Shown piece by piece: positions 1,520 through 20,339 of a stretch of DNA of 28,213 nt. Position 1 is the first letter of the stretch, and each line of letters opens with the position of its first letter. This DNA comes from a virus, in the IMG/VR virus record IMGVR_UViG_3300002144_000048, positions 1 through 28,213 of that record; one strand, 5' to 3'. The position numbers and the translations under genes are program-made. The notes below the pieces were generated by a model, which had not been told where the DNA came from, ran no database searches, and saw nothing but the letters and a program-made list of their open reading frames with translations.

Positions 1520-4066
1520 ATGTCTTTTTATACCTCAGTCAATCGTTATGGTAACTCAATCTTGTATCGTGGGTACAATGATAACGGAGTTGCTATTAAT
1601 GATAGAATAAAGTTTAAGCCAAAACTATACGCTCCAGTAGATACTGAATCAGAGTTCAAATCATTCTTCGGCGATAACGTCAAAGAGATTGAGTTCGAGT
1701 CTATGGGCGCTGCTAAAGAATATGTTGGTATGTACGATGGTACTGACAACTATCAGATTCATGGTACTACAAACTATATTCACCAGTTCATTACAGATCG
1801 TTTTCCCAAAGACATTTCATTTAATATCAAACACATTAACGTTGTTAACTTTGATATCGAGGTAGCATCTGATGATGGTTTCCCTACACCAGAAGCGGCT
1901 GCTTATCCAGTGATTTCTATCGCTCTTAAATCAAGTCAATCATCTGTTTATCAAGTCTGGGGTCTCGGTGAGTATGATCCAGAAAAGTGTGAAGTTGATA
2001 TGCACGGTGATCTTATTCAGTATCATTTCTGTAAGTCTGAAGAAGAACTTCTTGCTAAGTTTCTCGGCTACTGGTCTAAGAACTATCCAGATGTTATCAC
2101 TGGTTGGAATAGTCGTTTCTTTGATATTCCGTATATCGTAAATCGTATTCGTATCATTGCTGGTGAAGAATATGTCAATAAGCTTTCGCCATGGAAACAA
2201 GTCAACACACGTAATCAAAATATTATGGGTCGTGAACAGTTTGGATATGAACTCGTTGGCATTCAGCAAGCAGACTATCTTGAACTGTTTAAGAAGTTTG
2301 GTTATTCGTATGGTATGCAAGAATCATATAAACTAGATCATATTGGTTATGTTGTTCTCGGCGACAACAAACTATCGTATGAAGAACATGGTAGCCTACA
2401 CACACTCTATAAGAATGATCATCAGAAGTTTATTGACTATAACATTAAAGACGTTCAGCTTGTTGACCGTATTGATCAGAAGATGGGTCTGATTTCTCTG
2501 GCTCTGACAATGGCGTATAAAGGTGGTGTTAATGTTAGTGACACTATGGGTACTACTAACATATGGGAATCGATTATCTATCGGCGCCTGTTGAGCAAGA
2601 ATATCATTTCTCCTATCAATCAGATTGATGGTATTTCATATTCTGTTCTCGGATCAACCGAACTAAAAGATGGCAATAAAGCACTGAATATTGCTGGCGG
2701 TTATGTCAAAGATCCTCAAGTAGGTTCACACGACTGGGTTGTTTCTTTTGACTTGAACTCACTATATCCTAACATCATTGTCCAACAGAACATCTCACCC
2801 GAGACATTAGTACATCAAGAGCGTAGACCTCAAGGTGTTAAGTATTATATGAACCATGATAGAACTAAACAAATAAGTAAAGACTTTGCGGTATGTTCTT
2901 CTGGTGTTATGTTTCATAAAGATAAACAGGGCATTGTTCCAGAGTTGATTGTCGATTACTATGCAGAGCGTACTGTTATAAAAAAGAAAATGTTAAAAGC
3001 ACAGTCTGCATATGAGAAGACTAAAGACAAAGCATTAGAATCAGAAATCAATCAGCTACACAATAATCAGATGGCTATTAAGATTCTTCTTAACTCTCTC
3101 TATGGCGCTCTGGCTAACAAACATTTTAAGTACTTTGATAATGCCTTAGCAGAATCAGTAACGCTTACTGGTCAGACTGTTATTCAGTGGGCTGAAGAAG
3201 CTATCAATAAAGAAATGAATAGTCTTCTTAAAACATCCAAAGATTATGTTATTGCCATTGATACTGATTCGGTTTATATTAGCATGGCTGGTCTTGTGAA
3301 ACAGTTTGCTCCAGCAGATCCAGTTAAGTTCATTGATAAGATTTGTGAAGAACACTTTAAGAAAGTTCTAAAGAAATCATACGATGAGTTCTATTTTATG
3401 ATGAACGGTTACACACCACGTATGGAAATGGATCGTGAGGTCATTGCCGATCGTGGTATCTGGACTGCAAAGAAAAGATATATTCTCAATGTGCATAACT
3501 CTGAGGGTGTTCAATACGCAGAACCCAAACTCAAGATGATGGGTATTGAAGCGGTCAAGTCTTCAACTCCACAAATCTGCCGTGACAAGTTCAAAGAGAT
3601 ATTCAAAGTTATTATGAATAAATCTGAAGCTGATGTACAGAAGTTTATTCGTGAGTTTAAAGCGGAGTTTAGTAAACTGCCGCCTGAAGCAGTATCCTTT
3701 CCACGTGGCGTGAATGGTATTGACAAGTTTGGTGATAAGAAAAACATCTACGGCAGCGGTACACCAATGCATGTTCGTGGTGCTTTGTTATATAATCACT
3801 ATGTCAAACAAAACAAACTTCAAGATAAATACGAATCGATTAAGAATGGCGAGAAGATCAAGTTTGTGTATCTGAAAACACCAAACACTATCAAAGAAAA
3901 CTGTATAGGTTATCCAATGCAGCTGCCTAAAGAACTAGGTCTACATAAATACGTTGATTACAATAAAATGTTTGAGAAGACTTTTCTTGATCCACTGACA
4001 CCGATACTTGATGCTGTTGATTGGCAGTCTGAGCCAAGAGCATCACTTGAAGATTTCTTTGGATAA
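1520..4066 (+). CDS. 43: Family-B DNA polymerase (T4 gp43-like)
   Basis: An 848-residue replicative polymerase (T4 gp43 is about 898). The 3'-5' exonuclease domain shows Exo I FDIE (D112, E114), Exo II WNSRFFD (D202) and Exo III YNIKD (Y307, D311). Polymerase motif A is DLNSLYP (D411), motif B is KILLNSLYG (K521-G529) and motif C is DTD (D581, D583). All catalytic residues are intact, so it should be an active proofreading replicase. The C-terminus ends ASLEDFFG, matching the T4 gp43 tail that binds the sliding clamp gp45. GGAG precedes the start. It has its own promoter (1466). No intein or homing insertion is seen. Confidence 0.97.
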
Positions 4067-5220: not shown

Positions 5221-5441
5221 CAGGTGCATCTCGTGATTTAGAACAGAGCATAATGGAATGTTGGAATGTATGTGAGGACTTAGGTACCGTATATAGGCAA
5301 GTGTGTGATGGTGAGCGAGAGCCTACCATAGATGAAATCACAAATGCTTTGATGGGTATGCAACAGTTATATCAATGGAAATTTGAACAGCTGTTTTTTA
5401 CATATGAAGAAGCACTGAAGAAAGGGCTAAGGAGAGAATGA
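5217..5441 (+). CDS. Small hypothetical protein, 74 aa (GTG start)
   Basis: A 74-residue acidic helical protein with two cysteines near the start ([11 protein letters not shown]). It begins with GTG at 5217, overlapping the preceding stop (GTGA), with AAGGA about 7 bases upstream. The C-terminal helix ([21 protein letters not shown]) is amphipathic. Its stop overlaps the cupin start (ATGA). No known family is recognised. Confidence 0.65.
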
Positions 5442-5779
5442 TTGCTGGTAAAGTATGGGGCAATACCGAACTTATAGAAGCCAATGGCGCACTTGAGTTT
5501 CATCGTATTGAAATGAACAAGGGTGGTGTTTGTTCTAAACACCTGCATGAGTTTAAATGGAACGGGTTCTATGTTGAATCAGGTCGTATGCTTATTCGTG
5601 TATGGCAAAACGACTATAGTCTTGTTGATGAAACAGAACTACAGATTGGTCAATACACTAAGGTAAAGCCTGGTGTGTATCATCAGTTTGAATGCCTTGA
5701 AGACGGTGTAGCATTTGAACTATACTGGGCAGAGTTTAACCATAACGATATCAAAAGGGAGACAGTCGGGCATGGATAA
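5438..5779 (+). CDS. Cupin protein, mannose-6-phosphate isomerase-like
   Basis: A 113-residue single-domain cupin. The first motif is [15 protein letters not shown] (metal ligands H35 and H37), the second is PGVYHQFE (H82). The opening [10 protein letters not shown] and the [16 protein letters not shown] run are typical of cupins related to type II mannose-6-phosphate isomerases. Such enzymes interconvert fructose-6-phosphate and mannose-6-phosphate with a metal ion. A phosphomannomutase two genes downstream fits that reaction. An alternative is another sugar-phosphate isomerase or a non-enzymatic sugar-binding cupin. It overlaps both neighbours. Confidence 0.7.
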
Positions 5780-5987
5780 TGTAGTCGAATTTAAAAGAAA
5801 AGAGGATATTTTTATTCTAGGCTTTATAATGCCTGAAATTATTAGCATCAATAAAAAGGGTGATGAGAATATCACACTAGAAGCTAAAGATGGTAAGGCT
5901 CATGCTTGGGTTGTGGCAAAGGATAAAACTGAAGCCAAGAAAAAGCTAACTGATATGATTACTAATATCACCGAATGGCTAGACTAA
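5772..5987 (+). CDS. Small hypothetical protein, 71 aa
   Basis: A 71-residue protein, N-terminus [18 protein letters not shown]-terminus a lysine-rich helix (DKTEAKKKLTDMITNITEWLD). ATG 5772 overlaps the cupin stop by 8 nt and has GGGAG about 10 bases upstream. The central AKDGKAHAWVVAKDKTEAKK strand-helix pattern suggests a small alpha/beta fold. It is coupled to the following HAD gene by TAATG. Function unknown. Confidence 0.7.
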   Translation: MDNVVEFKRKEDIFILGFIMPEIISINKKGDENITLEAKDGKAHAWVVAKDKTEAKKKLTDMITNITEWLD

Positions 5988-6325
5988 TGAAATATGTAAT
6001 CGACATCGACGGCACTATCTGTAAAGAAGTTATTCTTCCTAACACTGGTGGTAAAAAAGACTATGCCAATCATATTCCAATGCCAGAGCGTATTGCAAAA
6101 GTAAATGCGTTATATAATGCGGGACACACAATTAAGTATATGACTGCTCGTGGCTGTGTTAGTGGCATTGACTATTATCAACTAACAAAAGATCAACTAG
6201 TAAACTGGGGCGCAAAGCATCATGAATTAAGCGTAGGCGAGAAAGAAAACTACGACATCTGGATTGACGACAAAGCATTCTGGAGTGAGAACTTCTTCCG
6301 TGAAACAGGAGAAACTTATGAGTAG
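5987..6325 (+). CDS. Small HAD-superfamily phosphatase
   Basis: A 112-residue minimal HAD hydrolase. Motif I is DIDGT (nucleophile Asp and acid/base Asp), motif II is the threonine in YMTARG, motif IV is WIDDKA. It resembles short HAD proteins linked to capsule or sugar biosynthesis, and in marine phages often seen near sugar genes. Starting at 5987 (TAATG) puts motif I at residues 5-9, the normal distance, so the upstream in-frame ATG 5975 is disfavoured. It probably removes phosphate from a sugar phosphate or nucleotide; the substrate is unknown. It overlaps the aldolase by 8 nt. Confidence 0.8.
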   Translation: MKYVIDIDGTICKEVILPNTGGKKDYANHIPMPERIAKVNALYNAGHTIKYMTARGCVSGIDYYQLTKDQLVNWGAKHHELSVGEKENYDIWIDDKAFWSENFFRETGETYE

Positions 6326-7139
6326 ATTTATTGCAGCAATGGATCACAGTGGTGGTTCGACCGGCGGCGTACTAGAACGCTACGGACAAGAATACACCGA
6401 ATCAAACAAGATGGACAAAGTTCATGCTATGCGTTTACGAATGGTTAACTCACCTGCTTTTAATGATAAAAATATCTGGGCAGCAATCCTCTACAAAGAC
6501 ACAGTTGCACGTGGCATGGTTAACATCTTGGATGAAAAAGGCATCGATACGTTCCTAAAGATTGACAGTGGTTGTAACGAAGATGGAACACTTAAACAGT
6601 TTCCAGTAAAGCAGCTGTTAGAGTTTGCAACACAGACTGATGCAAATGGTGCTAGTATCGGTGCTAAAATATACGGTACAAAAATGCGTAGTATTGTTAA
6701 AAGTGTAGACATGGTTAGAGCAATTCTTACACAACAGTTTCAACTAGCAGAAACTATTTGTAGTTACGGACTTGTACCTATCATCGAACCAGAGGTTCCT
6801 ATTGATCATCCTGAGAAAGAACTAATTGAACAAGAACTATACGAACTATTAGAGAAGTTTTTGAATGAGAAAAAATTTAAAGTTATTCTTAAACTAACAC
6901 CTCCTGAAGTGCCTAACCTGTATCACAACCTAACAGTTAAGCATAATGTAGAACGAGTAGTGTTCCTAAGCGGCGGATACAGCACAGACGAAGCGTGTAA
7001 TAGACTCGGACTTAACGAAAATGTAAGTGCTAGTTTTAGTAGAGCATTGTCTGAAGGCTTAAATAAGGGGTTTACAGACGAACAATTTAATGATATAATG
7101 GAACATAATATACTTAGAATTGTAAAGGCATCTTCATGA
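6318..7139 (+). CDS. Class I fructose-bisphosphate aldolase (Staphylococcus Fda-like)
   Basis: A 273-residue Schiff-base aldolase, slightly shorter than the staphylococcal enzyme (296). Diagnostic stretches run in order: FIAAMDHSGGSTGGVLERYG at the N-terminus, FLKIDSG, GTKMRSIV, LVPIIEPEV, VILKLTPPEVPNLYHNL (K192 as the expected Schiff-base lysine) and VVFLSGGYSTDEA, then ASFSRAL. All active-site signatures are intact. The enzyme interconverts fructose-1,6-bisphosphate with dihydroxyacetone phosphate and glyceraldehyde-3-phosphate. The start at 6318 is set by AGGAGA (6307-6312). Placement between a HAD phosphatase and a phosphomannomutase suggests diversion of central carbon into a sugar pathway. 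Class I aldolase of this subtype is unusual in a phage. Confidence 0.9.
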   Translation: MSRFIAAMDHSGGSTGGVLERYGQEYTESNKMDKVHAMRLRMVNSPAFNDKNIWAAILYKDTVARGMVNILDEKGIDTFLKIDSGCNEDGTLKQFPVKQLLEFATQTDANGASIGAKIYGTKMRSIVKSVDMVRAILTQQFQLAETICSYGLVPIIEPEVPIDHPEKELIEQELYELLEKFLNEKKFKVILKLTPPEVPNLYHNLTVKHNVERVVFLSGGYSTDEACNRLGLNENVSASFSRALSEGLNKGFTDEQFNDIMEHNILRIVKASS

Positions 7140-7855
7140 CAAAAAGCTTTATCTTTGATGTTGACGGAACATTAACACCATCTCGTGGTAGAATTGACGA
7201 GGAATTCCGTCTGTGGTTCGCTCAGTTCTGTTGGGATAATGATGTGTATATGGTCACCGGATCAGATAAAGCAAAGACTGTTGAACAAGTCGGTGAGTAT
7301 ATTTACAATCTGTGTAAGAGAGTATACCAATGTGCTGGTAATGATATATGGGAACAAGATAATAATATCAAGAAGCCTGCATTTATGACTCTACCTGATA
7401 TTGCTGAAGAATATCTTGATCGACAACTTAACTATACCGATTGGGTGCCATTAACTGGTGCTCACTCTGATTATAGACCAGGTCTACTAAACTTTTCTAT
7501 TGTTGGTAGAAATGCCACACTAGAACAGCGCAAAATGTATTCTGATTATGATAAACAAGTTAAAGAACGGTCACGTATTGCCCAAGGATTTAATAAAAGA
7601 TTTCCTCAATACCAAGCATCTGTTGCTGGTGAAATCGGTATTGATATTACTGTAAAAGGTTGTAATAAATCTCAGATACTCAAAGACTTTGATGAAGCTG
7701 GTCTTTACTTCGAAGATATTATTTTCTTTGGTGATAAATGTGATGCTGGTGGTAATGACTATGAGATTGCCGAAGCTGTTGCATTTGGTGGTGGAAGAGT
7801 GTATAATGTAAAAGACTGGAAAGATACTTGGGTTAAACTAAAAGGAATTATATAA
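7136..7855 (+). CDS. Eukaryote-like phosphomannomutase (HAD class IIB)
   Basis: A 239-residue protein close in length to eukaryotic PMM (about 246). Motif I FDVDGTLTPSR has D8 and D10; MVTGSDKAKT follows; the cap domain has PGLLNFSIVGRNAT then YSDYDK; and FFGDKCDAGGNDYEI gives D200 and the GGND motif. This combination is characteristic of alpha-phosphomannomutase of the eukaryotic type, which converts mannose-6-phosphate to mannose-1-phosphate, the precursor of GDP-mannose. Most bacteria use the unrelated ManB/AlgC family. The start overlaps the aldolase stop (ATGA). Mutase rather than phosphatase activity is inferred from motif conservation. Confidence 0.85.
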   Translation: MTKSFIFDVDGTLTPSRGRIDEEFRLWFAQFCWDNDVYMVTGSDKAKTVEQVGEYIYNLCKRVYQCAGNDIWEQDNNIKKPAFMTLPDIAEEYLDRQLNYTDWVPLTGAHSDYRPGLLNFSIVGRNATLEQRKMYSDYDKQVKERSRIAQGFNKRFPQYQASVAGEIGIDITVKGCNKSQILKDFDEAGLYFEDIIFFGDKCDAGGNDYEIAEAVAFGGGRVYNVKDWKDTWVKLKGII

Positions 7856-7995
7856 TGTGGGCAATTCTTGTGATATCATTTGTGTCTAATATATATGGCG
7901 CATTTGAAAATAAAGATGATTGCATTGCAGCTGCAATAGATTTAAAGAGCCAAGGCATAAAAGCAGTTTGTGTTCAGATAGAGGAAAAGAAATGA
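7855..7995 (+). CDS. Small protein with hydrophobic N-terminus, 46 aa
   Basis: A short gene fitting exactly between its neighbours: ATG overlaps the preceding TAA (TAATG) and its TGA overlaps the next ATG (ATGA). The 46 residues begin MWAILVISFVSNIYGAF, a possible short membrane or signal segment, followed by a soluble part with two cysteines (DDCIAAAIDL and KAVCVQIEEKK). Small proteins of the form hydrophobic start plus YG-x-F plus C-x3-A are frequent in marine phages; function unknown. Exact coding continuity supports it as real. Confidence 0.7.
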   Translation: MWAILVISFVSNIYGAFENKDDCIAAAIDLKSQGIKAVCVQIEEKK

Positions 7996-8459
7996 AAGTA
8001 GGAATCACAGCATCTACATTTGATCTACTTCATGCAGGACATGTTATGATGCTCCGTGAAGCTAAAGATCAATGTGACTATCTTATCTGTGCTTTACAGA
8101 TTGACCCATCATTTGATAGACCAGACAAGAATAAGCCTGTTCAGTCAATTGTAGAACGCCATACTCAACTGGCTGCTGTTAGGTATGTCGATGAGGTTAT
8201 TCCCTATCTCACTGAACAAGATCTTGAAGACATTCTTAAAATGCATAACATTAATGTGCGTATTATTGGAGAAGAATATAAAGAAAGAGAATTTACCGGT
8301 AGAATCATCTGCGACCAACGCGGCATTGATATATACTTCAATAAGAGAGACCACAGGTTCTCTACCAGTGATCTGAGAGCAAGAGTATATGGCGAAGAAC
8401 TAAAAAAAGATATTGAAGGTGATACTATGGTTTTACATTCAGATAAAAATGTGGTATAA
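7992..8459 (+). CDS. Cytidylyltransferase-like nucleotidyltransferase (TagD family)
   Basis: A 155-residue single-domain nucleotidyltransferase. The nucleotide-binding site shows STFDLLHAGHVMMLREAK (HAGH at 14-17). RYVDEVIPY and RIIGEEYK follow, and STSDLR (124-129) is the ISSTxIR-type motif. Closest in pattern to glycerol-3-phosphate cytidylyltransferase, which makes CDP-glycerol; other members activate different phospho-alcohols or sugars. Starting at 7992 (ATGA overlap) gives MKVGITAS, the normal N-terminal strand; the earlier ATG 7920 is rejected. It could activate the product of the aldolase/mutase steps, but the true substrate is unknown. Confidence 0.85.
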   Translation: MKVGITASTFDLLHAGHVMMLREAKDQCDYLICALQIDPSFDRPDKNKPVQSIVERHTQLAAVRYVDEVIPYLTEQDLEDILKMHNINVRIIGEEYKEREFTGRIICDQRGIDIYFNKRDHRFSTSDLRARVYGEELKKDIEGDTMVLHSDKNVV

Positions 8460-8838: not shown

Positions 8839-9714
8839 ATGATAGAGAGAATTTACATACCCACTGTTCGAAGATGCGACAAACAAATTACATTCGAGAA
8901 TCTTCCTAAAGAACTTCAAGAACGAGTTGTTATGGTTATCGAAGCAAGAGAACGACATCTTTATAGTTATCCTTGCGAGTACTTGAAAATACCTGAAAGC
9001 ATAGTGGGTACTTGGACACAGTTAGCACAGACTAGATTGTTCATTCACAAACACGCTGGTGCGATTAAGTATTGTGTTGCTGATGATGATCTACCGATTA
9101 AACGAAGAAACTCTAAGTATTGGACTGAAACGTCAAATATGGAAACGTCTAAGCGATATGCTACTCAAGAAGAAATCCTGTTGATGTATGAGACTGTGGA
9201 TAAATGGTTTGATGAACCGTCTATAGGAGTTATTGGTCTTTCTGATCCAGGCACTCCACCTCAAAATAATGAGTATGTTGATACCGTAGATGTGTATGGT
9301 TATGTGTTTTATGACGGCAGAATGATATCGAAGATTATCGATGATATAGATATTTGCTCATTGAGGATAGCAGAAGATGTACTCTTTCTCTATGAGATAC
9401 TGTCTAGAGGAATAAACACTAGAAGATCTAATGAGTGGATGTATGATAACAGAAGTGCGTCTGATAAAAAGCTTGCAAAATCTAGGGTAGTCTGGACAGA
9501 AATGTATAAAGATGGTGATGAGAAGCCAGCTAATTACTACCAAAGTAAAGAGCATTACGATGCTATGAGATTCATCCAAGAGAGGTATCCCCACGGCGTG
9601 AAGATTTTTGAAAAAGATGGAAAGATGAAAAACGTTAAGTACTGGAAGAAAGTGTACAAACCTTTGGGATCTGATGGCACACCCAGCGCATCCCTTGAGA
9701 GCTTTTTCTCTTGA
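8839..9714 (+). CDS. Putative GT-A-fold glycosyltransferase with C-terminal sliding-clamp-binding tail
   Basis: A 291-residue protein. The N-terminus RIYIPTVRRCDKQITFENLP followed by RVVMVIEARE, then TWTQLAQTRLFIHKHAGAIK and the acidic YCVADDDLP (DDD at 82-84), matches the layout of the TET-associated glycosyltransferase-like protein at 11254 (strand, RAR-helix, DDN). I infer a nucleotide-sugar-dependent GT-A fold with DDD as the metal site. The last eight residues, ASLESFFS, match six of eight positions of the polymerase tail ASLEDFFG, indicating clamp docking. Acting on DNA at the replication fork follows as inference. A glycosyltransferase acting on another substrate is the main alternative. 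It has its own strong promoter. Confidence 0.6.
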   Translation: MIERIYIPTVRRCDKQITFENLPKELQERVVMVIEARERHLYSYPCEYLKIPESIVGTWTQLAQTRLFIHKHAGAIKYCVADDDLPIKRRNSKYWTETSNMETSKRYATQEEILLMYETVDKWFDEPSIGVIGLSDPGTPPQNNEYVDTVDVYGYVFYDGRMISKIIDDIDICSLRIAEDVLFLYEILSRGINTRRSNEWMYDNRSASDKKLAKSRVVWTEMYKDGDEKPANYYQSKEHYDAMRFIQERYPHGVKIFEKDGKMKNVKYWKKVYKPLGSDGTPSASLESFFS

Positions 9715-10314: not shown

Positions 10315-10559
10315 GAGAAAAGTTTAAAATACATAAAGCCAATAAGATGGCTGACTGGGTAGAGAATGCGGTTACCGAATGGGCTTCTGACTTGATTCTT
10401 GGTCATTTTGAGGTCGAATCAATAGGAGATCTAACTCGTAAAGAAATTGATGAAGTTATTGAAGAATGGGAAGAACTGTCTAGTTACAATGATTGGTTAG
10501 GTCTAGGCTTTCGCAACTGTATATGCACTTGGGAAACTGAAAACGATGAATATATTTGA
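10311..10559 (+). CDS. Acidic hypothetical protein, 82 aa (GTG start)
   Basis: An 82-residue protein starting with GTG in a GTGA overlap. It contains ADWVENAVTEWASDLILGHF and a conserved-looking IDEVIEEWEELSSYNDWLG helix, with five tryptophans. Its character (acidic, tryptophan-rich) is like that of the preceding protein, and the pair may form a complex. The stop overlaps the MazG start by one base. Confidence 0.65.
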   Translation: MREKFKIHKANKMADWVENAVTEWASDLILGHFEVESIGDLTRKEIDEVIEEWEELSSYNDWLGLGFRNCICTWETENDEYI

Positions 10560-10918
10560 TGATAAGAAAGAAACAAATGCAGCTAGTTGAAAAGATTGCC
10601 CAATGGCACCGTGATCGTAATCTGATTGACGGCAGTACCGATAAAGATCAGTACATGAAACTGATTCAAGAAGCTGGTGAACTATCTGATAACATCTGTA
10701 AGGGCAAAGATATCCGTGATGATATTGGTGATATGATGGTTGTTCTTATTAATATTATGACTCGTAATGGTCTATCTATGGAAGAATGTCTACAAGTAGC
10801 CTATGATGATATTAAAGATCGTAAAGGAAAGATGATTAATGGCGTTTTTGTGAAAGAAAGTGATTTACAAGATGACCTATATAATGCTATACTGTACGAA
10901 CACACAACGGAGATATAA
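10559..10918 (+). CDS. mazG: MazG-like nucleotide pyrophosphohydrolase
   Basis: A 119-residue single MazG domain. The metal-binding pattern is KLIQEAGELSDN (E38, E41) and DDIGDMMVVL (D55, D58), followed by the typical AYDDIKDRKGKMINGVF tail. MazG enzymes hydrolyse nucleoside triphosphates to monophosphates. In phages they are proposed to adjust (p)ppGpp-linked physiology or to cleanse or recycle dNTPs, including host-derived or modified ones. ATG 10559 overlaps the upstream TGA. Given the modification genes around it, excluding unmodified dNTPs is a possible role (inference). Confidence 0.85.
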   Translation: MIRKKQMQLVEKIAQWHRDRNLIDGSTDKDQYMKLIQEAGELSDNICKGKDIRDDIGDMMVVLINIMTRNGLSMEECLQVAYDDIKDRKGKMINGVFVKESDLQDDLYNAILYEHTTEI

Positions 10919-11254
10919 ATGTCAAGTGAAGTTGAAGAGTCAGCAGAATACGAAAACTTCTTAGGTAAGAAAGAAGAACTTCCTGAATCAGCAAATCTTG
11001 CTGACTTCTTAGGTATTCCTGCAGAAGAAGCCGATGATAAAGTATTTTGGCAGAAACATTGGCAAGGTATGCCAGAGTTTAATCAAGAAGAGAATCCACC
11101 ACACCGTAAGTTGATTATAAGCTTTCGTAGTGAAGAAGACTATCAAGAGTTTGCAACTCTGATTGGTCAAAAACTCACAAAGAAAACTAAGAGTGTCTGG
11201 CATCCAAAGCTAGATCGTGATGCTAATACACTGAAGCGGTGGGTAGAAGAATAA
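10919..11254 (+). CDS. Hypothetical protein with two FLG repeats, 111 aa
   Basis: A 111-residue protein immediately upstream of the TAGT-like gene (TAATG). The N-terminal half is acidic and holds two similar short segments, SAEYENFLGK and SANLADFLGI. The C-terminal half is a small alpha/beta domain (RKLIISFRSEEDYQEFATLIGQKL followed by KSVWHP) of a type often met in phage proteins near DNA-modifying enzymes. ATG 10919 follows the upstream TAA directly, with GGAG at 10909-10912. Possible adaptor protein; function unproven. Confidence 0.7.
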   Translation: MSSEVEESAEYENFLGKKEELPESANLADFLGIPAEEADDKVFWQKHWQGMPEFNQEENPPHRKLIISFRSEEDYQEFATLIGQKLTKKTKSVWHPKLDRDANTLKRWVEE

Positions 11255-12153
11255 TGACAAATCCCAAATATCCAGTTTATATTATTTCAAAAGGTCGACA
11301 TGAATCTATGTTGACCTCTAGATCGTTGGCACGTATGAAAGTGCCTCATTATATTGCTATTGAGCCGCAAGATGAAAAACTATACGACAAAACACTTGAT
11401 AACTTTGGCATTCGACCATATGTTACATTACTAGTTGCTCCGTTTAGTAATCATGGCGATGGTCCTGGTCGTGCTAGAAACTGGTGTTGGGATCACTCTA
11501 TCGCTCTTGGTGCAGAACGTCACTGGGTACTAGATGATAATATCGCAGACTTTTATCGTCTACAACATAACTTGCGTATTCGTGTTGAGAGTGGTGCTAT
11601 CTTTCGTGCATCAGAAGACTTTGTTGATCGCTATGAGAATGTACCAATCTCTGGGTTTCAGTATCGTTTCTTTATTGCACCAAACACTAAGTACCCACCT
11701 TTTGTAAAAAACACACGTATATATTCTACGCTTTTGATTGATAACAAATGCAAGTTTCGCTGGCGTGGTCGCTATAATGAAGACACTGACATTTGTCTAC
11801 GTGTACTTAAAGATGGTGACTGTACTATTCAGTTTAATGCATTCTTGCAAGGCAAAGCAGCTACACAGTCTGTCAAAGGTGGTAATACCTCTGAGTTCTA
11901 TCACGCAGAAAATACTGAAAATGAAAACTTTGAAAAGTCTGGATTCAATAGTCTGGGTACTGTGAACAAGTCGCAGATGCTTGTAGATATGCATCCTGAT
12001 GTTGCACGAATGGTATGGCGTTTTCGTCGTTGGCATCACCATGTCGATTACTCTTCTTTCAAACCAAATCAACTGATTCTAAAATCTGGTGTTGTGATTC
12101 CAAAAGGCGTCAATAACTATGGTATGAAGTTGACTACAAACTTTAAAGGCTAA
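11254..12153 (+). CDS. TET-associated-type glycosyltransferase (TAGT family)
   Basis: A 299-residue GT-A-fold glycosyltransferase. Diagnostic parts: VYIISKGRHESMLTSRSL strand-helix at the N-terminus, PHYIAIEPQ, GRARNWCWDHSIALGAERHW, the DxD-type VLDDNI (D94, D95), and YNEDTDICLRVLKDGDCT (E176, D177, D179) near the catalytic site. This pattern is that of phage TAGT proteins, which were predicted to glycosylate hydroxymethylated or otherwise modified bases in DNA. No TET/JBP oxygenase is in this window, so any acceptor base would have to be made elsewhere. The start is TAATG; ORF extension to GTG 11239 is not favoured. Family call good, DNA as acceptor is inference. Confidence 0.75.
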   Translation: MTNPKYPVYIISKGRHESMLTSRSLARMKVPHYIAIEPQDEKLYDKTLDNFGIRPYVTLLVAPFSNHGDGPGRARNWCWDHSIALGAERHWVLDDNIADFYRLQHNLRIRVESGAIFRASEDFVDRYENVPISGFQYRFFIAPNTKYPPFVKNTRIYSTLLIDNKCKFRWRGRYNEDTDICLRVLKDGDCTIQFNAFLQGKAATQSVKGGNTSEFYHAENTENENFEKSGFNSLGTVNKSQMLVDMHPDVARMVWRFRRWHHHVDYSSFKPNQLILKSGVVIPKGVNNYGMKLTTNFKG

Positions 12154-12245: not shown

Positions 12246-12770
12246 ATGACAAAAAATGTTTCACAACGAGATTCGACTTTTAAAGGCGGCATTCAAAAAG
12301 GCACAACTGCTTTTGATGTTGCTAGTAAAAAACTAGATAAACAATTGAAAGAGTCTTTTGATGTATTGTCTAAATCTTATTCGCAATATGAAGTTTGTAA
12401 ACAGTTTACCAAAGAAATGAAAATCAAATATATTGGTGATGATTGTTTTGGCTTTGCTCCTGATGGCGGCGCATGGTTTAAAAATGGCAAGTTAGTTGCA
12501 GTGTTTGAAGCCAAGAAACAAGGCAAACTTGGTAATGCTAATGAACGCTGGTATGATAATGCCGACACGGCAAAATATATAAACAAAGACGTTGTTTATG
12601 TTACCTTCTGTTCTGGTGCTGGTGCTGCGCCTGGCGAGTGTCTTGATAAGATGCGAAGAAAAGCTACTATCACTAAAGGCAAAAACTTTAAGTTTTTTAT
12701 GAATCCAGTTGGTTTTACCGACAATGAAGTTCTGTCGGTTATGGAAAATGTGTTGAAAGAAATAGTATGA
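12246..12770 (+). CDS. EcoRI-like type II restriction endonuclease (PD-(D/E)xK)
   Basis: A 174-residue nuclease. The catalytic core reads FAPDGGAWFKNGKLVAVFEA followed by KKQG: P72-D73-G-G, E88-A-K90, matching the PDGG and EAKHQG of EcoRI (D91, E111, K113). The following GNANER (96-101) matches GNAIER of EcoRI, whose N141, A142, E144 and R145 read the AATT core. EcoRI itself is 277 residues, so this is a compact form with a shortened loop between the two blocks and no obvious C-terminal arm. The stop overlaps the methyltransferase start (ATGA). Strong shared promoter. Alternative: a stand-alone host-degrading nuclease with no sequence-matched methylase. Confidence 0.75.
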   Translation: MTKNVSQRDSTFKGGIQKGTTAFDVASKKLDKQLKESFDVLSKSYSQYEVCKQFTKEMKIKYIGDDCFGFAPDGGAWFKNGKLVAVFEAKKQGKLGNANERWYDNADTAKYINKDVVYVTFCSGAGAAPGECLDKMRRKATITKGKNFKFFMNPVGFTDNEVLSVMENVLKEIV

Positions 12771-13693
12771 AACCATTATATATGTGGGCAGGCGGTAAGA
12801 ATAAGATGATTTCAAAATACTTACTGTCTCCTGGCATACCTTTGGCTGGATATGATACGTTTGTTGAACCATTCTTTGGTGGTGGAGCTATGATGATTTG
12901 GGTTAATGAAAACAATCCAAACATCAAACGCTTTGTTTTAAATGATATCAAAGAAGAACTCGTAGGAATATATGTTGCCATAAAAACAGATGTTGATAAC
13001 TTTATTAAAAAGTTAGATGCTCTATCAGCTTTATACATACCATTAGATAAAGCTGAACGTAAAATATTCTTCTATGATCTAAGAACACCTTACGCCACAA
13101 ACACCCACGGTCTTAATAAAACAGACGAAAGCGCAACTCTTTATTTTCTTATGAAGACTGCTTTCAATGGTATTTGGCAAAGTACCAAACGTGCAAATGG
13201 TAGATTTGATACTCCTTTTGGATTGGGTAATCAAAAGACAGTTGTTTACGATAAAGATAACGTTTTAGAATGGCACCAGTTTTTACAGAGGGTCGACATC
13301 ACTTGTGGTGATTGGAAAGACTCATGTAAGATTGTTGAAGAGAAAGCATTCTACTTTATGGACCCTCCTTACAGAGATAGCTTTACAAGTTATGGCGAAG
13401 GCTTTACCGATGCAGATCATCAAACTCTAATAGAGTATTGTGTACAAAAAGATTTGCAAGGTAATATTGTATTTTACTGTAATAGGGATGATGCACAAGA
13501 TGGCTTCTTTGATGCACACAAAGCACATCTAAACGACAGCTACTTTGACATTAAGTATACTGCTGGGCGTAGAGCCACTGAAAAAGACAAAGATGGCAAT
13601 CCTATCCTAGACGAAGATGGTAACAATAGACGTACAGCAAAAGCAGCAAAAGAAATATTGCTGCACACAACTCTTGCCATTAAAAACATCTAA
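12767..13693 (+). CDS. D12-class (Dam-like) DNA adenine methyltransferase
   Basis: A 308-residue N6-adenine methyltransferase of the alpha/D12 class. It begins MKPLYMWAGGKNKM (WAGGK, the AdoMet-binding start), has motif I FVEPFFGGGAMM, the class-typical YFLMKTAFNGIW and the catalytic motif IV DPPY (199-202). The C-terminal part has a charged insertion (EKDKDGNPILDEDGNNRR) followed by KEILLHTTL. All key residues are present. The class includes Dam, DpnM and EcoRV methylase; the target cannot be read from the sequence. Coupled by ATGA to the EcoRI-like nuclease, it most simply is its protective partner. Confidence 0.9.
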   Translation: MKPLYMWAGGKNKMISKYLLSPGIPLAGYDTFVEPFFGGGAMMIWVNENNPNIKRFVLNDIKEELVGIYVAIKTDVDNFIKKLDALSALYIPLDKAERKIFFYDLRTPYATNTHGLNKTDESATLYFLMKTAFNGIWQSTKRANGRFDTPFGLGNQKTVVYDKDNVLEWHQFLQRVDITCGDWKDSCKIVEEKAFYFMDPPYRDSFTSYGEGFTDADHQTLIEYCVQKDLQGNIVFYCNRDDAQDGFFDAHKAHLNDSYFDIKYTAGRRATEKDKDGNPILDEDGNNRRTAKAAKEILLHTTLAIKNI

Positions 13694-13708: not shown

Positions 13709-14662
13709 ATGACACATATTATGGTAACAGGTGGTGCAGGATTTATTGCGTATCATCTCATCAACTCTTTAGTTGAAAATGGATATGAGGTATCAGCATT
13801 TGATAGCTTCAATCATTACTATGATCCAGAACTAAAGAGAGATCGTGCTGATAAACTAAAAGACCTTGGTGTTGATGTAGCGTTTGTTGATCTAAAAGAT
13901 CGACCAGCGCTTATAAAGTTTGTTGAACATCATAAGCCAGATATCGTAATGCACTTAGCTGCTTATGCTGGTGTTCGCCATTCACTCAAAGATCCACAGA
14001 CTTATATTAATAACAACATCACTGGTACTCAAAATCTGATTGATGCTTGTAACAAAGCTGGTGTTGATAAAGTTGTCTATGCATCCTCGTCATCTGTTAT
14101 GGCTGGTAATCCTCTTCCGTGGAATGAAGAAGAGAAGTGTGGTCATCTGTTGAATCCCTATGGCTATTCTAAGATAACAAACGAAAATCAGTTTATGAGT
14201 AGTAATATTAAGAGTGCTATTGGGCTAAGATTCTTTACTGTCTATGGACCATGGGGTCGACCAGACATGGCTCTATTTGATTTTACTAAAAACATTGTTG
14301 CTGGTAAACCCATTCAGTTGTACAACTATGGTAATATGATTCGAGACTTTACCTATATTGATGATATTGTCCAAGGTATTCGACTCATCTTTGACGAGAT
14401 ACAGAAGCACGATAGTGTCAAAGAAATATATAATATTGGCTACGGAGAGCAAGTAAAACTAGTTGATTTCGTTGAACATATCGAAAATAACTTAGATAGA
14501 AAATCTATTAGAGATTTAGTACCAATGCACCCGGCAGACGCTCAGGCGACTTGGTCAGACACTACCAAGCTACAAAAACTAGGCTATAACCCAACTACTT
14601 CTATCGCAGAAGGAGTGCAGAAATTTATTGAGTGGTACAAAATGTATTATAATATCAACTAA
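13709..14662 (+). CDS. NAD-dependent UDP-glucuronate 4-epimerase-like protein
   Basis: A 317-residue extended short-chain dehydrogenase. Rossmann motif TGGAGFIA (8-14, last Gly replaced by Ala), FDSFNHYYDPELK, MHLAAYAGVRHSL, YASSSSVM, catalytic Y151xxxK155, and the strongly diagnostic GLRFFTVYGPWGRPDMALF and IRDFTYIDDIVQGI. These are hallmarks of epimerases turning UDP-glucuronate into UDP-galacturonate. With the UDP-glucose dehydrogenase at 15386 it would give a two-step UDP-glucose to UDP-galacturonate route. The A14 substitution may alter NAD binding only mildly. It starts 15 bases after the methylase stop, so it shares its operon. Confidence 0.85.
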   Translation: MTHIMVTGGAGFIAYHLINSLVENGYEVSAFDSFNHYYDPELKRDRADKLKDLGVDVAFVDLKDRPALIKFVEHHKPDIVMHLAAYAGVRHSLKDPQTYINNNITGTQNLIDACNKAGVDKVVYASSSSVMAGNPLPWNEEEKCGHLLNPYGYSKITNENQFMSSNIKSAIGLRFFTVYGPWGRPDMALFDFTKNIVAGKPIQLYNYGNMIRDFTYIDDIVQGIRLIFDEIQKHDSVKEIYNIGYGEQVKLVDFVEHIENNLDRKSIRDLVPMHPADAQATWSDTTKLQKLGYNPTTSIAEGVQKFIEWYKMYYNIN

Positions 14663-15385: not shown

Positions 15386-16207
15386 ATGAAAACTAAAATC
15401 GCAATCATTGGGCATGGCTTTGTTGGCAAAGCTGTTGAGTATGGATTTACACATCCAGGCGTAGAACTTCATATCGTTGATCCAAAGTACGGAACAACAG
15501 TTGATGATCTGCCTGTCTGTAACTACTATTTCGTTTGTGTCCCAACACCATTTGGTTCTGACGGCACGATTGATACGACTATTCTAGATGATGTGATGGA
15601 AAAACTTGTCGCAGTCAACGGCATAGTTATTATTAAATCAACTGTCACGCCAGATGTTATTACTAAATGGCACAATCATATCGTTTACAATCCAGAGTTC
15701 TTGACTGAGAAATCTGCTAACGAACAGTTTGTTAGCCCAGAGTTTCATATCTTTGGTGGGTTTGAAGTGTACACAGATGAGATAGAACGGCTGTATAAAG
15801 AGTTCTCATTATGTACACCATGCCCAGCATTACATATGTCTCTTGAAGAAGCCAGCTTTGTAAAGTATACTATCAATAGTTTTCTTGCTATGAAAGTAAC
15901 ATTCTTCAATCAACTATACGACACAGTAAAAACAACTCGTGCTAACTACGGCACTATTATTAAGGCTGTTGGCTTTGATAAACGTATTGGACCTAGTCAC
16001 ACAAAAGTACCAGGCTTTGATAAACGTCAAGGCTACGGTGGTGCTTGCTTTCCAAAAGACACATCGGCGTTTGTTAGTTACAGTAAACGCTTGACATTAT
16101 TAGAGAAATGTATTAAAATAAACAATACATATCGCTCACAGTACGAACTAGATGAAAGAGAGAAAGAACAGCATGTCGATTATGGACAAACTAAAGAAGA
16201 ACTCTAA
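15386..16207 (+). CDS. UDP-glucose/GDP-mannose dehydrogenase-like protein, C-terminal domain missing
   Basis: A 273-residue protein. Rossmann motif IIGHGFVG (G9, G11, G14), FVCVPTPF, IIKSTVTPD, YNPEFLTE, the central helix FVKYTINSFLAMKVTFFNQ and the active site GYGGACFPKD (C221, K224, D225). These are all UDP-glucose 6-dehydrogenase signatures. Full-length family members have 390-450 residues; here the UDP-binding C-terminal domain is replaced by a charged 30-residue tail. It would oxidise UDP-glucose to UDP-glucuronate if the truncated form is active. It overlaps UvsX by 35 nt. GDP-mannose dehydrogenase activity is an alternative. Confidence 0.8.
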   Translation: MKTKIAIIGHGFVGKAVEYGFTHPGVELHIVDPKYGTTVDDLPVCNYYFVCVPTPFGSDGTIDTTILDDVMEKLVAVNGIVIIKSTVTPDVITKWHNHIVYNPEFLTEKSANEQFVSPEFHIFGGFEVYTDEIERLYKEFSLCTPCPALHMSLEEASFVKYTINSFLAMKVTFFNQLYDTVKTTRANYGTIIKAVGFDKRIGPSHTKVPGFDKRQGYGGACFPKDTSAFVSYSKRLTLLEKCIKINNTYRSQYELDEREKEQHVDYGQTKEEL

Positions 16208-19399: not shown

Positions 19400-19659
19400 T
19401 GGGTAAAAAGAAAATGCGGGCCACCCAAACTTCTAAAGGTACTGGTCGTTCTTCAATGAGAACAAGCAAATCTGATCCTGGTATTCGTTTGTTGAACCAA
19501 CTCAAGGCTTTGGAGAAGGGCAAAAATGTAAAAATGGTATTGCCTAATCTTGTTGAGAAAAATGGTAAGCAACAACCAGCAACTATTCTCAAAGTTAATG
19601 GTCGGGATTGGTTGAAACGCCGTGAAGGTAGTCCTGGTAAGAAGGAATCAGCTGAGTGA
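19399..19659 (+). CDS. Basic hypothetical protein, 86 aa
   Basis: An 86-residue lysine/arginine-rich protein. It has basic segments at the start (MGKKKMRATQTSKGTGRSS) and end (GRDWLKRREGSPGKKESAE) around a short hydrophobic core (VKMVLPNLVEKNG). Nucleic-acid binding is plausible from charge alone. Starts TAATG, stops GTGA into thyX. No family recognised. Confidence 0.7.
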   Translation: MGKKKMRATQTSKGTGRSSMRTSKSDPGIRLLNQLKALEKGKNVKMVLPNLVEKNGKQQPATILKVNGRDWLKRREGSPGKKESAE

Positions 19660-20339
19660 AAGTCAGACTTATTGGTCACACGACTGTTAACCCACAAACT
19701 GTTATAGGATTAGAAGATGTCCAAGATTTGGTCGCTTATTGCGCCCGTGTCTCGAATCCCTCCAATCAGGTCAATTCCGAGACATCAGAGAAACTCATCC
19801 GATACCTCATCAAACATAAGCACTGGAGTCCTCTGGAAATGGCCTCAGCTACAGTTGAAGTCGAAACCACCAGGGACATCGCAAGACAATTCTTGAGGCA
19901 TCGTTCGTTTTCATTTCAAGAGTTCAGTCAAAGGTATGCTGATCCAGCTCTGATGGGGGATCAGTTTGTTCTAAGAGATGCCCGTTGGCAAGATACTAAG
20001 AATCGGCAGAACTCTGTTGACTTTGATATGACTCGACCATATGATAAAGATATTAATAAAGAGTGGATTGCCAAACAGAGAAAGGTAATCAAAGCTGCAA
20101 CTGATGCTTATGAATGGGCAGTAGGTAATGGTATTGCAAAAGAACAAGCACGAGTTGTGCTACCCGAAGGTAATACTATTTCTAGGCTATATGTAAATGG
20201 TACACTACGCAGTTGGATTCATTATATCGACTTGAGATCATCTAATGGCACACAAAAGGAGCACATGGAACTAGCACGAGAAATCGGCAAAGCAATCGCA
20301 GAAATCTTTCCAATGACAAAGGAGTTCATCAATGAGTAA
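19656..20339 (+). CDS. thyX: Flavin-dependent thymidylate synthase ThyX
   Basis: A 227-residue enzyme starting with GTG in a GTGA overlap. The ThyX signature RHRx7S is RHRSFSFQEFS at 81-91, followed by QRY; HKHWSPLEMASATVEVE and ARVVLPEG with NGTLRSWIHYIDLR are also typical. ThyX methylates dUMP to dTMP using methylene-tetrahydrofolate, FAD and NADPH. It supplies thymidine nucleotides for AT-rich phage DNA. ThyX proteins or relatives can also act on modified pyrimidines, so a role in unusual base synthesis cannot be excluded, but the motif is the standard one. Confidence 0.95.
   Translation: MKVRLIGHTTVNPQTVIGLEDVQDLVAYCARVSNPSNQVNSETSEKLIRYLIKHKHWSPLEMASATVEVETTRDIARQFLRHRSFSFQEFSQRYADPALMGDQFVLRDARWQDTKNRQNSVDFDMTRPYDKDINKEWIAKQRKVIKAATDAYEWAVGNGIAKEQARVVLPEGNTISRLYVNGTLRSWIHYIDLRSSNGTQKEHMELAREIGKAIAEIFPMTKEFINE

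What the first reader, a model, noticed from the sequence alone, without database searches (positions are those of the whole stretch)
8839..9714. A putative glycosyltransferase ends with the DNA polymerase's clamp-binding tail
Seen: the final eight residues ASLESFFS match gp43's final eight ASLEDFFG at six positions; both are exactly C-terminal. Known: the T4 gp43 C-terminal peptide docks on sliding clamp gp45, and T4 alpha-glucosyltransferase has been reported to bind gp45. Inferred: this enzyme rides the clamp and modifies new DNA behind the fork. It argues that the glycosyltransferase acts on DNA.
Basis: partly seen in the sequence, partly recalled or inferred. Interest (0 to 1): 0.8.

Follow-up and report, generated by a model that had tools for sequence, protein, structure and literature searches.

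The report
Phage DNA-modifying enzymes with polymerase tails
A sugar-transferring enzyme of a marine T4-like phage ends in the same short peptide that hooks the phage's DNA polymerase onto the ring-shaped sliding clamp, and at least three unrelated DNA-modifying enzymes in related phages end the same way, which suggests that these phages fasten their DNA-modification machinery to the replication machinery.

Summary
ORF 8839-9714 (291 aa) ends ASLESFFS and the gp43-type polymerase (1520-4066) ends ASLEDFFG; no other window protein matches that tail at more than 2 of 8 positions. The tail is conserved: 29 of 38 homologue clusters (down to ~35% identity) end in [STPN]-L-x-x-[FL]-[FLMY] after a variable linker; the tailless paralogue TAGT2 does not. 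In nine relatives' contigs (~1,300 ORFs) the motif hits all 9 glycosyltransferases, all 7 polymerases and under 1% of the rest. In T4 the same pattern finds gp43, gp55 and gp33, the known C-terminal clamp ligands. AlphaFold puts the tail on a low-confidence end of a GT-A fold resembling TET-associated glycosyltransferases (TAGT).

Unrelated DNA-modifying enzymes of marine T4-like phages carry the same tail: a D12 methyltransferase (34/38 distinct C-termini), Mom (33/34) and TET oxygenase (32/33). Some loci read polymerase (tailed), C5-methyltransferase, TET (tailed), TAGT (tailed), a complete cytosine-glycosylation pathway. Five Mom proteins from other phage groups lack it.

Most likely these enzymes are tethered to gp45. 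Not shown: physical binding, timing behind the fork, and the acceptor base in the window's own lineage. T4 alpha-glucosyltransferase binds gp45 without this tail.

The parts
8839..9714 (+). TAGT1: tailed GT-A fold glycosyltransferase of the TET-associated glycosyltransferase group, 291 aa; body about residues 1-280, DDD (82-84) and ED (179-180) invariant in 42 homologues
9688..9711 (+). C-terminal clamp-binding-type tail ASLESFFS (core SLESFF at 9691-9708), preceded by a variable linker; low pLDDT with a short predicted helix 286-290
1520..4066 (+). gp43-type family B DNA polymerase, 848 aa
   Evidence: phrog_262, 1029 bits
4040..4063 (+). C-terminal tail ASLEDFFG of the polymerase; known clamp-binding element in T4/RB69 gp43
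   Evidence: PMC2988020
11239..12153 (+). TAGT2: second TET-associated glycosyltransferase, without the tail (ends LTTNFKG); next to TAGT1 in most relatives; internal negative control
10919..11254 (+). 111-aa conserved protein just upstream of TAGT2, function unknown
12767..13693 (+). D12-class N6-adenine DNA methyltransferase, tailless in this phage (ends LHTTLAIKNI)
5438..8459 (+). small-molecule and sugar-metabolism genes: cupin, phosphatase/kinase-like, class I aldolase-like, phosphomannomutase-like HAD, nucleotidyltransferase; inferred to help make the sugar donor
13709..14662 (+). NAD-dependent nucleotide-sugar epimerase
15386..16207 (+). UDP-glucose/GDP-mannose dehydrogenase family protein
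10556..10918 (+). MazG-like nucleotide pyrophosphohydrolase, below Pfam cut-off
19656..20339 (+). ThyX flavin-dependent thymidylate synthase; present in all five large relatives searched

Best explanation
ORF 8839-9714 is a DNA glycosyltransferase (TAGT group, GT-A fold) tethered to the phage's gp45-type sliding clamp by a flexible C-terminal peptide of the same kind as the tails of the phage's DNA polymerase and late sigma factor gp55. Shown: the sequence, conservation and specificity of the tail, the GT-A/TAGT fold, a gp45-type clamp gene in eight relatives' contigs, and the same tail on other DNA-modifying enzymes. Inferred: the tail docks in the hydrophobic patch of gp45; the tether holds the enzyme on DNA that carries loaded clamps, mainly freshly replicated DNA; and a sugar nucleotide (perhaps UDP-glucuronate-derived, from the neighbouring dehydrogenase and epimerase) is transferred to a modified base. 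The tailless TAGT2 next to it may add a second sugar or act as partner.
For: (1) Tail kept in 29 of 38 clusters below 85% identity, plus three degenerate forms, although the preceding sequence and linker differ; invariant Leu encoded by five codons in 51 sequences. (2) Specific: 9 of 1299 other ORF C-termini in nine relatives' contigs match, against 9/9 TAGT1 and 7/7 polymerases. (3) In T4 the pattern recovers gp43, gp55 and gp33 among 254 ORFs, and the internal motif of T4 ligase is visible; these C-termini bind gp45 and are interchangeable, and in gp55 are joined by a divergent linker of variable length (PMC2988020). (4) Paralogue TAGT2 lacks the tail in the complete copies read. (5) gp45-type clamp genes in relatives. 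(6) Fifth core residue covaries with the same phage's polymerase tail: Leu/Leu in two phages, Phe/Phe in eleven (Fisher p 0.013) and in three more found in the same search. (7) Same tail on Mom, D12 methyltransferase, TET and distant TAGTs, often beside the polymerase; Mom of Mu and four other phages outside the group lacks it. (8) Confident body (pLDDT mostly over 90), last two blocks 58 and 44; nearest viral structures are TAGTs including a beta-glucosyl-HMC-alpha-glucosyltransferase. (9) Sugar-nucleotide genes lie between polymerase and an uvsX-like gene as in RB69.
Against: No binding or docking was tested. No acceptor-making enzyme (thymidylate-synthase family, TET, 2OG oxygenase, C5-methyltransferase) was found in the window or the nearest large relatives, though contigs may be incomplete. 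Five of 38 clusters lack any tail. The motif is short: in T4 four of seven hits are not C-terminal clamp ligands known to me. The T4 alpha-GT/gp45 interaction is not the main determinant of its share of glucosylation. Sugar-nucleotide genes could also serve surface glycans.
Confidence: 0.82

Rival explanations
1. The tail binds gp45, but the enzyme works mainly post-replicatively on bulk DNA or on clamps left behind (for example during late transcription); tethering raises local concentration rather than coupling modification to the fork.
For: gp45 also serves late transcription; T4 alpha-GT binds gp45 yet promoter strength dominates its share of glucosylation.
Against: Tails resemble the polymerase's most closely and genes often sit beside the polymerase, but this does not separate the two readings.
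Confidence: 0.3
2. The C-terminal peptide is an intramolecular or oligomerisation element of the glycosyltransferase and resembles the clamp motif by convergence.
For: Amphipathic C-terminal peptides can pack on their own fold; the tail is predicted as a short helix.
Against: Low confidence and variable linker length; the same peptide ends unrelated folds (polymerase, Mom, methyltransferase, TET) and is absent from TAGT2 of the same family.
Confidence: 0.05
3. The tail binds the clamp but the enzyme glycosylates something else (surface glycan, a protein, or a small molecule), the clamp serving as store or regulator.
For: Neighbouring sugar-nucleotide genes could serve surface glycans; no acceptor-making enzyme found in the nearest relatives.
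Against: TAGTs of T-even phages act on DNA; in other marine phages a tailed TAGT lies in a cluster with polymerase, C5-methyltransferase and tailed TET; the other tailed enzymes are DNA modifiers.
Confidence: 0.1
4. Chance or shared-ancestry similarity of C-termini without function.
For: C-termini matching this pattern arise at about 0.7% in the background.
Against: Conserved over clusters down to ~35% identity with divergent flanks, varied codons for the invariant Leu, repeated in four unrelated enzyme families.
Confidence: 0.02

Closest known systems
[quoted passage not shown]
   Same: Exactly C-terminal, S/T-L-x-x-[FLM]-[FLY] core; in gp55 joined by a divergent linker of variable length; T4 tails SLDFLFG, SLDFLYEAND, TLDFLL
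   Different: Here on a glycosyltransferase, and in relatives on Mom, TET and DNA methyltransferases, rather than polymerase or transcription factors; binding not yet tested
T4 alpha-glucosyltransferase (a-gt) with gp45
   Same: Phage DNA glycosyltransferase reported to bind the sliding clamp (Sommer 2004, confirmed by pull-down in PMC13216743)
   Different: Other Pfam family (PF11440); its C-terminus (...FKEQFDIITK) lacks the tail
TET-associated glycosyltransferase (PF20691) / T2-T6 beta-glucosyl-HMC-alpha-glucosyltransferase (phrog_842)
   Same: Sequence profile, GT-A fold, DDD and ED residues
   Different: The window protein scores 27.3 bits against a Pfam cut-off of 27.5; the distant relatives read in cultured phages (Acinetobacter AB1I1M-1, LuckyBarnes) have no tail
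Eukaryotic DNMT1 with PCNA
   Same: DNA-modifying enzyme tethered to the replication clamp by a short motif (PMC9690074)
   Different: Cellular maintenance methylation through a PCNA-binding motif; here a phage system with several enzyme classes
RB69/Mosigvirus arabinosylation genes
   Same: Sugar-nucleotide genes between polymerase and uvsX (PMC6024577)
   Different: Mosigvirus uses a thymidylate-synthase-superfamily 5-hydroxy-dCMP synthase (PMC13390438); none found here

Membership tests
T4-type C-terminal sliding-clamp-binding motif | Short hydrophobic and acidic S/T-L-x-x-F-F-like peptide at the extreme C-terminus | tested here: met
   ASLESFFS; conserved in 29 of 38 clusters
T4-type C-terminal sliding-clamp-binding motif | Joined to the folded body by a flexible, divergent linker | tested here: met
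   Linker variable in sequence, mostly 6-10 residues to the motif Leu; pLDDT falls from ~95 to 44-58
T4-type C-terminal sliding-clamp-binding motif | Cognate gp45-type clamp in the same phage | tested here: met
   Clamp genes in the contigs of L005, L008, L001, L098, L108, L091, L105 and L116; the window fragment itself shows none
T4-type C-terminal sliding-clamp-binding motif | Physical binding to gp45 | not testable with these tools
   Only single chains can be folded; no binding assay
TET-associated glycosyltransferase (PF20691) | Pfam profile score above cut-off | tested here: inconclusive
   27.3 bits against 27.5 for the window protein; several orthologues exceed it, e.g. 35.6 in L008's contig
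TET-associated glycosyltransferase (PF20691) | GT-A fold with conserved acidic DxD-type motif | tested here: met
   GT-A matches in PDB; BFVD top named hits are TAGTs; D82-D84 and E179-D180 invariant in 42 sequences
TET-associated glycosyltransferase (PF20691) | Transfers sugar to a hydroxylated DNA base | not testable with these tools
   No acceptor-making enzyme found in the window's nearest large relatives; TET present beside distant tailed TAGTs
T4 alpha-glucosyltransferase (PF11440) | PF11440 profile match | tested here: not met
   Pfam scan up to E 1 reports only TAGT and a weak unrelated hit

The most novel reading that the evidence does not exclude
Marine T4-type phages fit whole DNA-modification pathways (D12 methyltransferase, Mom, TET and one or more glycosyltransferases) with interchangeable polymerase-type clamp tails, so that modification is scheduled by the sliding clamp; the tail is a portable module gained or lost in each enzyme family.
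Probability: 0.7. Interest if true: 0.85.

Novelty: new variant of a known kind. Interest (0 to 1): 0.75.

Why it matters
How phages modify their DNA before host nucleases reach it is open: T4 alpha-GT is the one phage example with a clamp link known to me, and its importance is disputed. A recurring clamp-type tail on at least four unrelated DNA-modifying enzyme families says that recruitment to the clamp is repeatedly selected, makes the timing question testable in a cultured phage (Melnitz, which has tailed polymerase, TET and Mom), and gives a simple sequence marker for finding further DNA-modifying or replisome-associated proteins among uncharacterised phage genes. It also assigns likely functions to two Melnitz genes annotated only as DUF465 and hypothetical.

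Tried and rejected
Direct docking or co-folding was not possible (single-chain folding only). Search of cultured phages with the window protein gave nothing at 1e-3; with distant homologue L116 it gave tailless relatives at 24-25% identity, with L108 nothing. Searches for the acceptor base source: thymidylate synthase family, Tet_JBP, C5-methylase and 2OG oxygenase gave none in the window or its nearest large relatives; the Tet_JBP search rang in no control genome, so it does not prove absence. 'T4 alpha-GT uses the same tail' was rejected from its sequence. Frameshift loss of the tail was checked for tailless members (L034, L092, L094, L106, L117): no tail seen in another frame just downstream. 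Sequence search for solved relatives of the enzyme found none of significance. 'All Kyanoviridae methyltransferases have the tail' was rejected: most cyanophage Dam homologues end at the catalytic domain, P-TIM40 ends PLEVMYAG. The Mom gene of the Edwardsiella phage record could not be read to a clean C-terminus and is left out of the counts. Papers on clamp motifs in phage DNA-modifying enzymes: none found in the held library apart from T4 alpha-GT; subscription papers are not held.

Full report
WHAT IS THERE. The window is a 28 kb virus record whose polymerase is nearest, among cultured phages, to Phage C48C1 of the Kyanoviridae (53.7% identity). ORF 8839-9714 encodes 291 aa ending GTPSASLESFFS, and the gp43-type polymerase at 1520-4066 ends [13 protein letters not shown]. 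By composition, six or more identities in eight has a probability near 1.4e-6 per protein, and no other window protein passes two of eight.

THE ENZYME. Pfam gives TAGT (PF20691) at 27.3 bits against a cut-off of 27.5, and PHROGs gives phrog_842, beta-glucosyl-HMC-alpha-glucosyltransferase, at 4e-11. A second TAGT at 11239-12153 scores 152 bits. The AlphaFold model from 42 homologues has mean pLDDT 90.9; the body is confident and the last two blocks of the chain fall to 58 and 44, with a short helix at 286-290. The PDB comparison gives GT-A enzymes; the best named viral matches are TAGTs, with Klebsiella phage PKO111 beta-glucosyl-HMC-alpha-glucosyltransferase at TM 0.65/0.68. D82-D84 and E179-D180 are invariant.

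THE TAIL IS CONSERVED. Two scans of IMG/VR gave 82 proteins (window included) with a readable C-terminus; the second scan used only N-terminal patterns, so the tail did not drive retrieval. In 38 clusters at 85% identity, 29 representatives match [ASTPNGD]L..[FL][FLMY] at the end, three more (L001, L024, L096) are degenerate forms, L036 has PLEEF followed by an extension, and five lack it. Members at ~35-40% identity, whose preceding 40 residues differ strongly, still end SLEDLF, SLSEFF, TLKEFL, SLENFF. The invariant Leu uses five codons in 51 sequences. The linker from the last conserved element to the motif is mostly 6-10 residues.

THE TAIL IS SPECIFIC. In nine relatives' contigs (1318 ORFs of 60 aa or more, greedy set) the pattern matches all nine TAGT1 and all seven polymerases present, and 9 of 1299 others, several of them antisense or short ORFs. 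The paralogue TAGT2 lacks it in the complete copies read. In T4 the pattern hits 7 of 254 ORFs: gp43, gp55, gp33, gp26, gp32, SegF and one ORF on the opposite strand; the internal motif of T4 ligase is also visible. gp43, gp55 and gp33 are described clamp ligands whose motifs can be freely exchanged (PMC2988020), and the ligase motif is described too (PMC7892883, PMC12121391). The pattern is therefore sensitive but, for one protein alone, not proof.

COVARIATION AND THE CLAMP. Where both proteins of a phage could be read, the fifth core residue is Leu in both in two phages (L008 and L098 contigs) and Phe in both in eleven (Fisher p 0.013; lineages are not fully independent), with three further Phe/Phe pairs. 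gp45-type clamp genes were found in eight relatives' contigs, confirmed by gp45-slide_C at 45 bits for L047. The window fragment has none in view.

OTHER DNA-MODIFYING ENZYMES HAVE THE SAME TAIL. Following the other motif hits led outside the finding. A Mom-family protein beside TAGT1 in L007 ends VALENFF, and another in L159 ends GSLEGFL. Cultured Methylophilales phage Melnitz has a Mom protein (annotated DUF465) ending TATLEGFF (Pfam Mom); 33 of 34 distinct relatives keep the tail. Mom proteins of Mu, JD024, and the Psychrobacter, Lactococcus and Aeromonas phages do not have it. Phage C48C1's D12 methyltransferase, next to the polymerase, ends STLDAFFG; 34 of 38 distinct relatives match, several ending TLEDFFG like the polymerases. 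These counts used a slightly wider pattern with a background of about 3.5%. Most cyanophage homologues of this methyltransferase stop at the catalytic domain.

A COMPLETE PATHWAY. In Melnitz a gene annotated hypothetical, next to the polymerase and a C5-cytosine methyltransferase, is a Tet_JBP oxygenase ending SGNLNDFLGE; 32 of 33 distinct relatives keep a tail. In several of these loci (L389, L401, L405, L407; partly L385) the order is polymerase (tailed), C5-methyltransferase (tailless), TET (tailed), TAGT (tailed), the last confirmed as PF20691 at 38-63 bits. This is the route 5mC, 5hmC, glycosylated 5hmC, and it argues that tailed TAGTs act on DNA. Clamp genes were found in three of four contigs of this TET group.

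HOW IT MOST LIKELY WORKS. The glycosyltransferase is held on clamp-loaded DNA by its tail and modifies bases as DNA is made or soon after. Shown here: sequence, conservation, specificity, predicted fold and genomic company. Inferred: docking on gp45, timing, donor sugar and acceptor. The sugar-nucleotide genes around it, between polymerase and an uvsX-like gene as in RB69, fit donor synthesis.

WHAT DOES NOT FIT. Neither the window nor its nearest large relatives (contigs of L005 and L008) show a thymidylate-synthase-family enzyme (relatives), TET, 2OG oxygenase or C5-methyltransferase; ThyX is present in all five large contigs searched. The acceptor base there is unknown. T4 alpha-GT binds gp45 without this tail, and clamp binding is reported not to set its share of glucosylation.

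NOVELTY. C-terminal clamp tails and one clamp-binding phage DNA glucosyltransferase are known, and DNMT1/PCNA is a cellular analogue. A polymerase-type tail shared by TAGT, TET, Mom and D12 methyltransferase was not found described in the held library. I rate it a new variant of a known kind. Percentages and binomial figures treat relatives as independent and should be read as descriptive.

Noticed in passing
L357 (phage Melnitz) 5208-6194, and L177 5992-6801: Melnitz gene 6 (hypothetical) is a Tet_JBP oxygenase and its DUF465 protein is a Mom-family protein; both carry the tail.
   Followed up: yes
L389, L401, L405, L407: Polymerase, C5-methyltransferase, TET and TAGT lie in one cluster; tails on all but the C5-methyltransferase.
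   Followed up: partly
L035 1786-2877, L085, L036: A GT-B type glycosyltransferase (PF00534) between TAGT1 and TAGT2, ending STLTEFMQ in L035.
   Followed up: partly
L028 949-1785, L029, L031, L032: A third TAGT copy in tandem, also tailed (TLTDFMQ).
   Followed up: partly
L027 3721-4320: Methyltransferase-like ORF directly upstream of TAGT1 ending VDLSEFME.
   Followed up: no
T4 gp26 (AF158101 115802-116428) and L130 1593-2288: Baseplate hub proteins of T4 and a marine relative both end in a tail-like peptide (GLKEFFELL, GLESFFG); could be structural.
   Followed up: no
L145 2470-2835: 121-aa protein (phrog_19233, weak NAD-ligase N-terminal similarity) ending SLENFFG.
   Followed up: no
L008 contig (G002) 15834-16421: ThyX gene lies directly upstream of TAGT1; no hydroxymethylase was found, so its role in making an acceptor base is an open idea.
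   Followed up: no
window 10919-11254: 111-aa protein conserved just upstream of TAGT2, without a Pfam family.
   Followed up: no
L048 588-1499: A possible GT-A-like protein next to the gp45 gene; a similar-looking protein occurs in L091.
   Followed up: no
L347, L349, L356: Some cyanophage Dam homologues end in PLE-type peptides (PLEAHLYGRV, PLEVMYAG, PLEVVLYG), possibly diverged tails.
   Followed up: no
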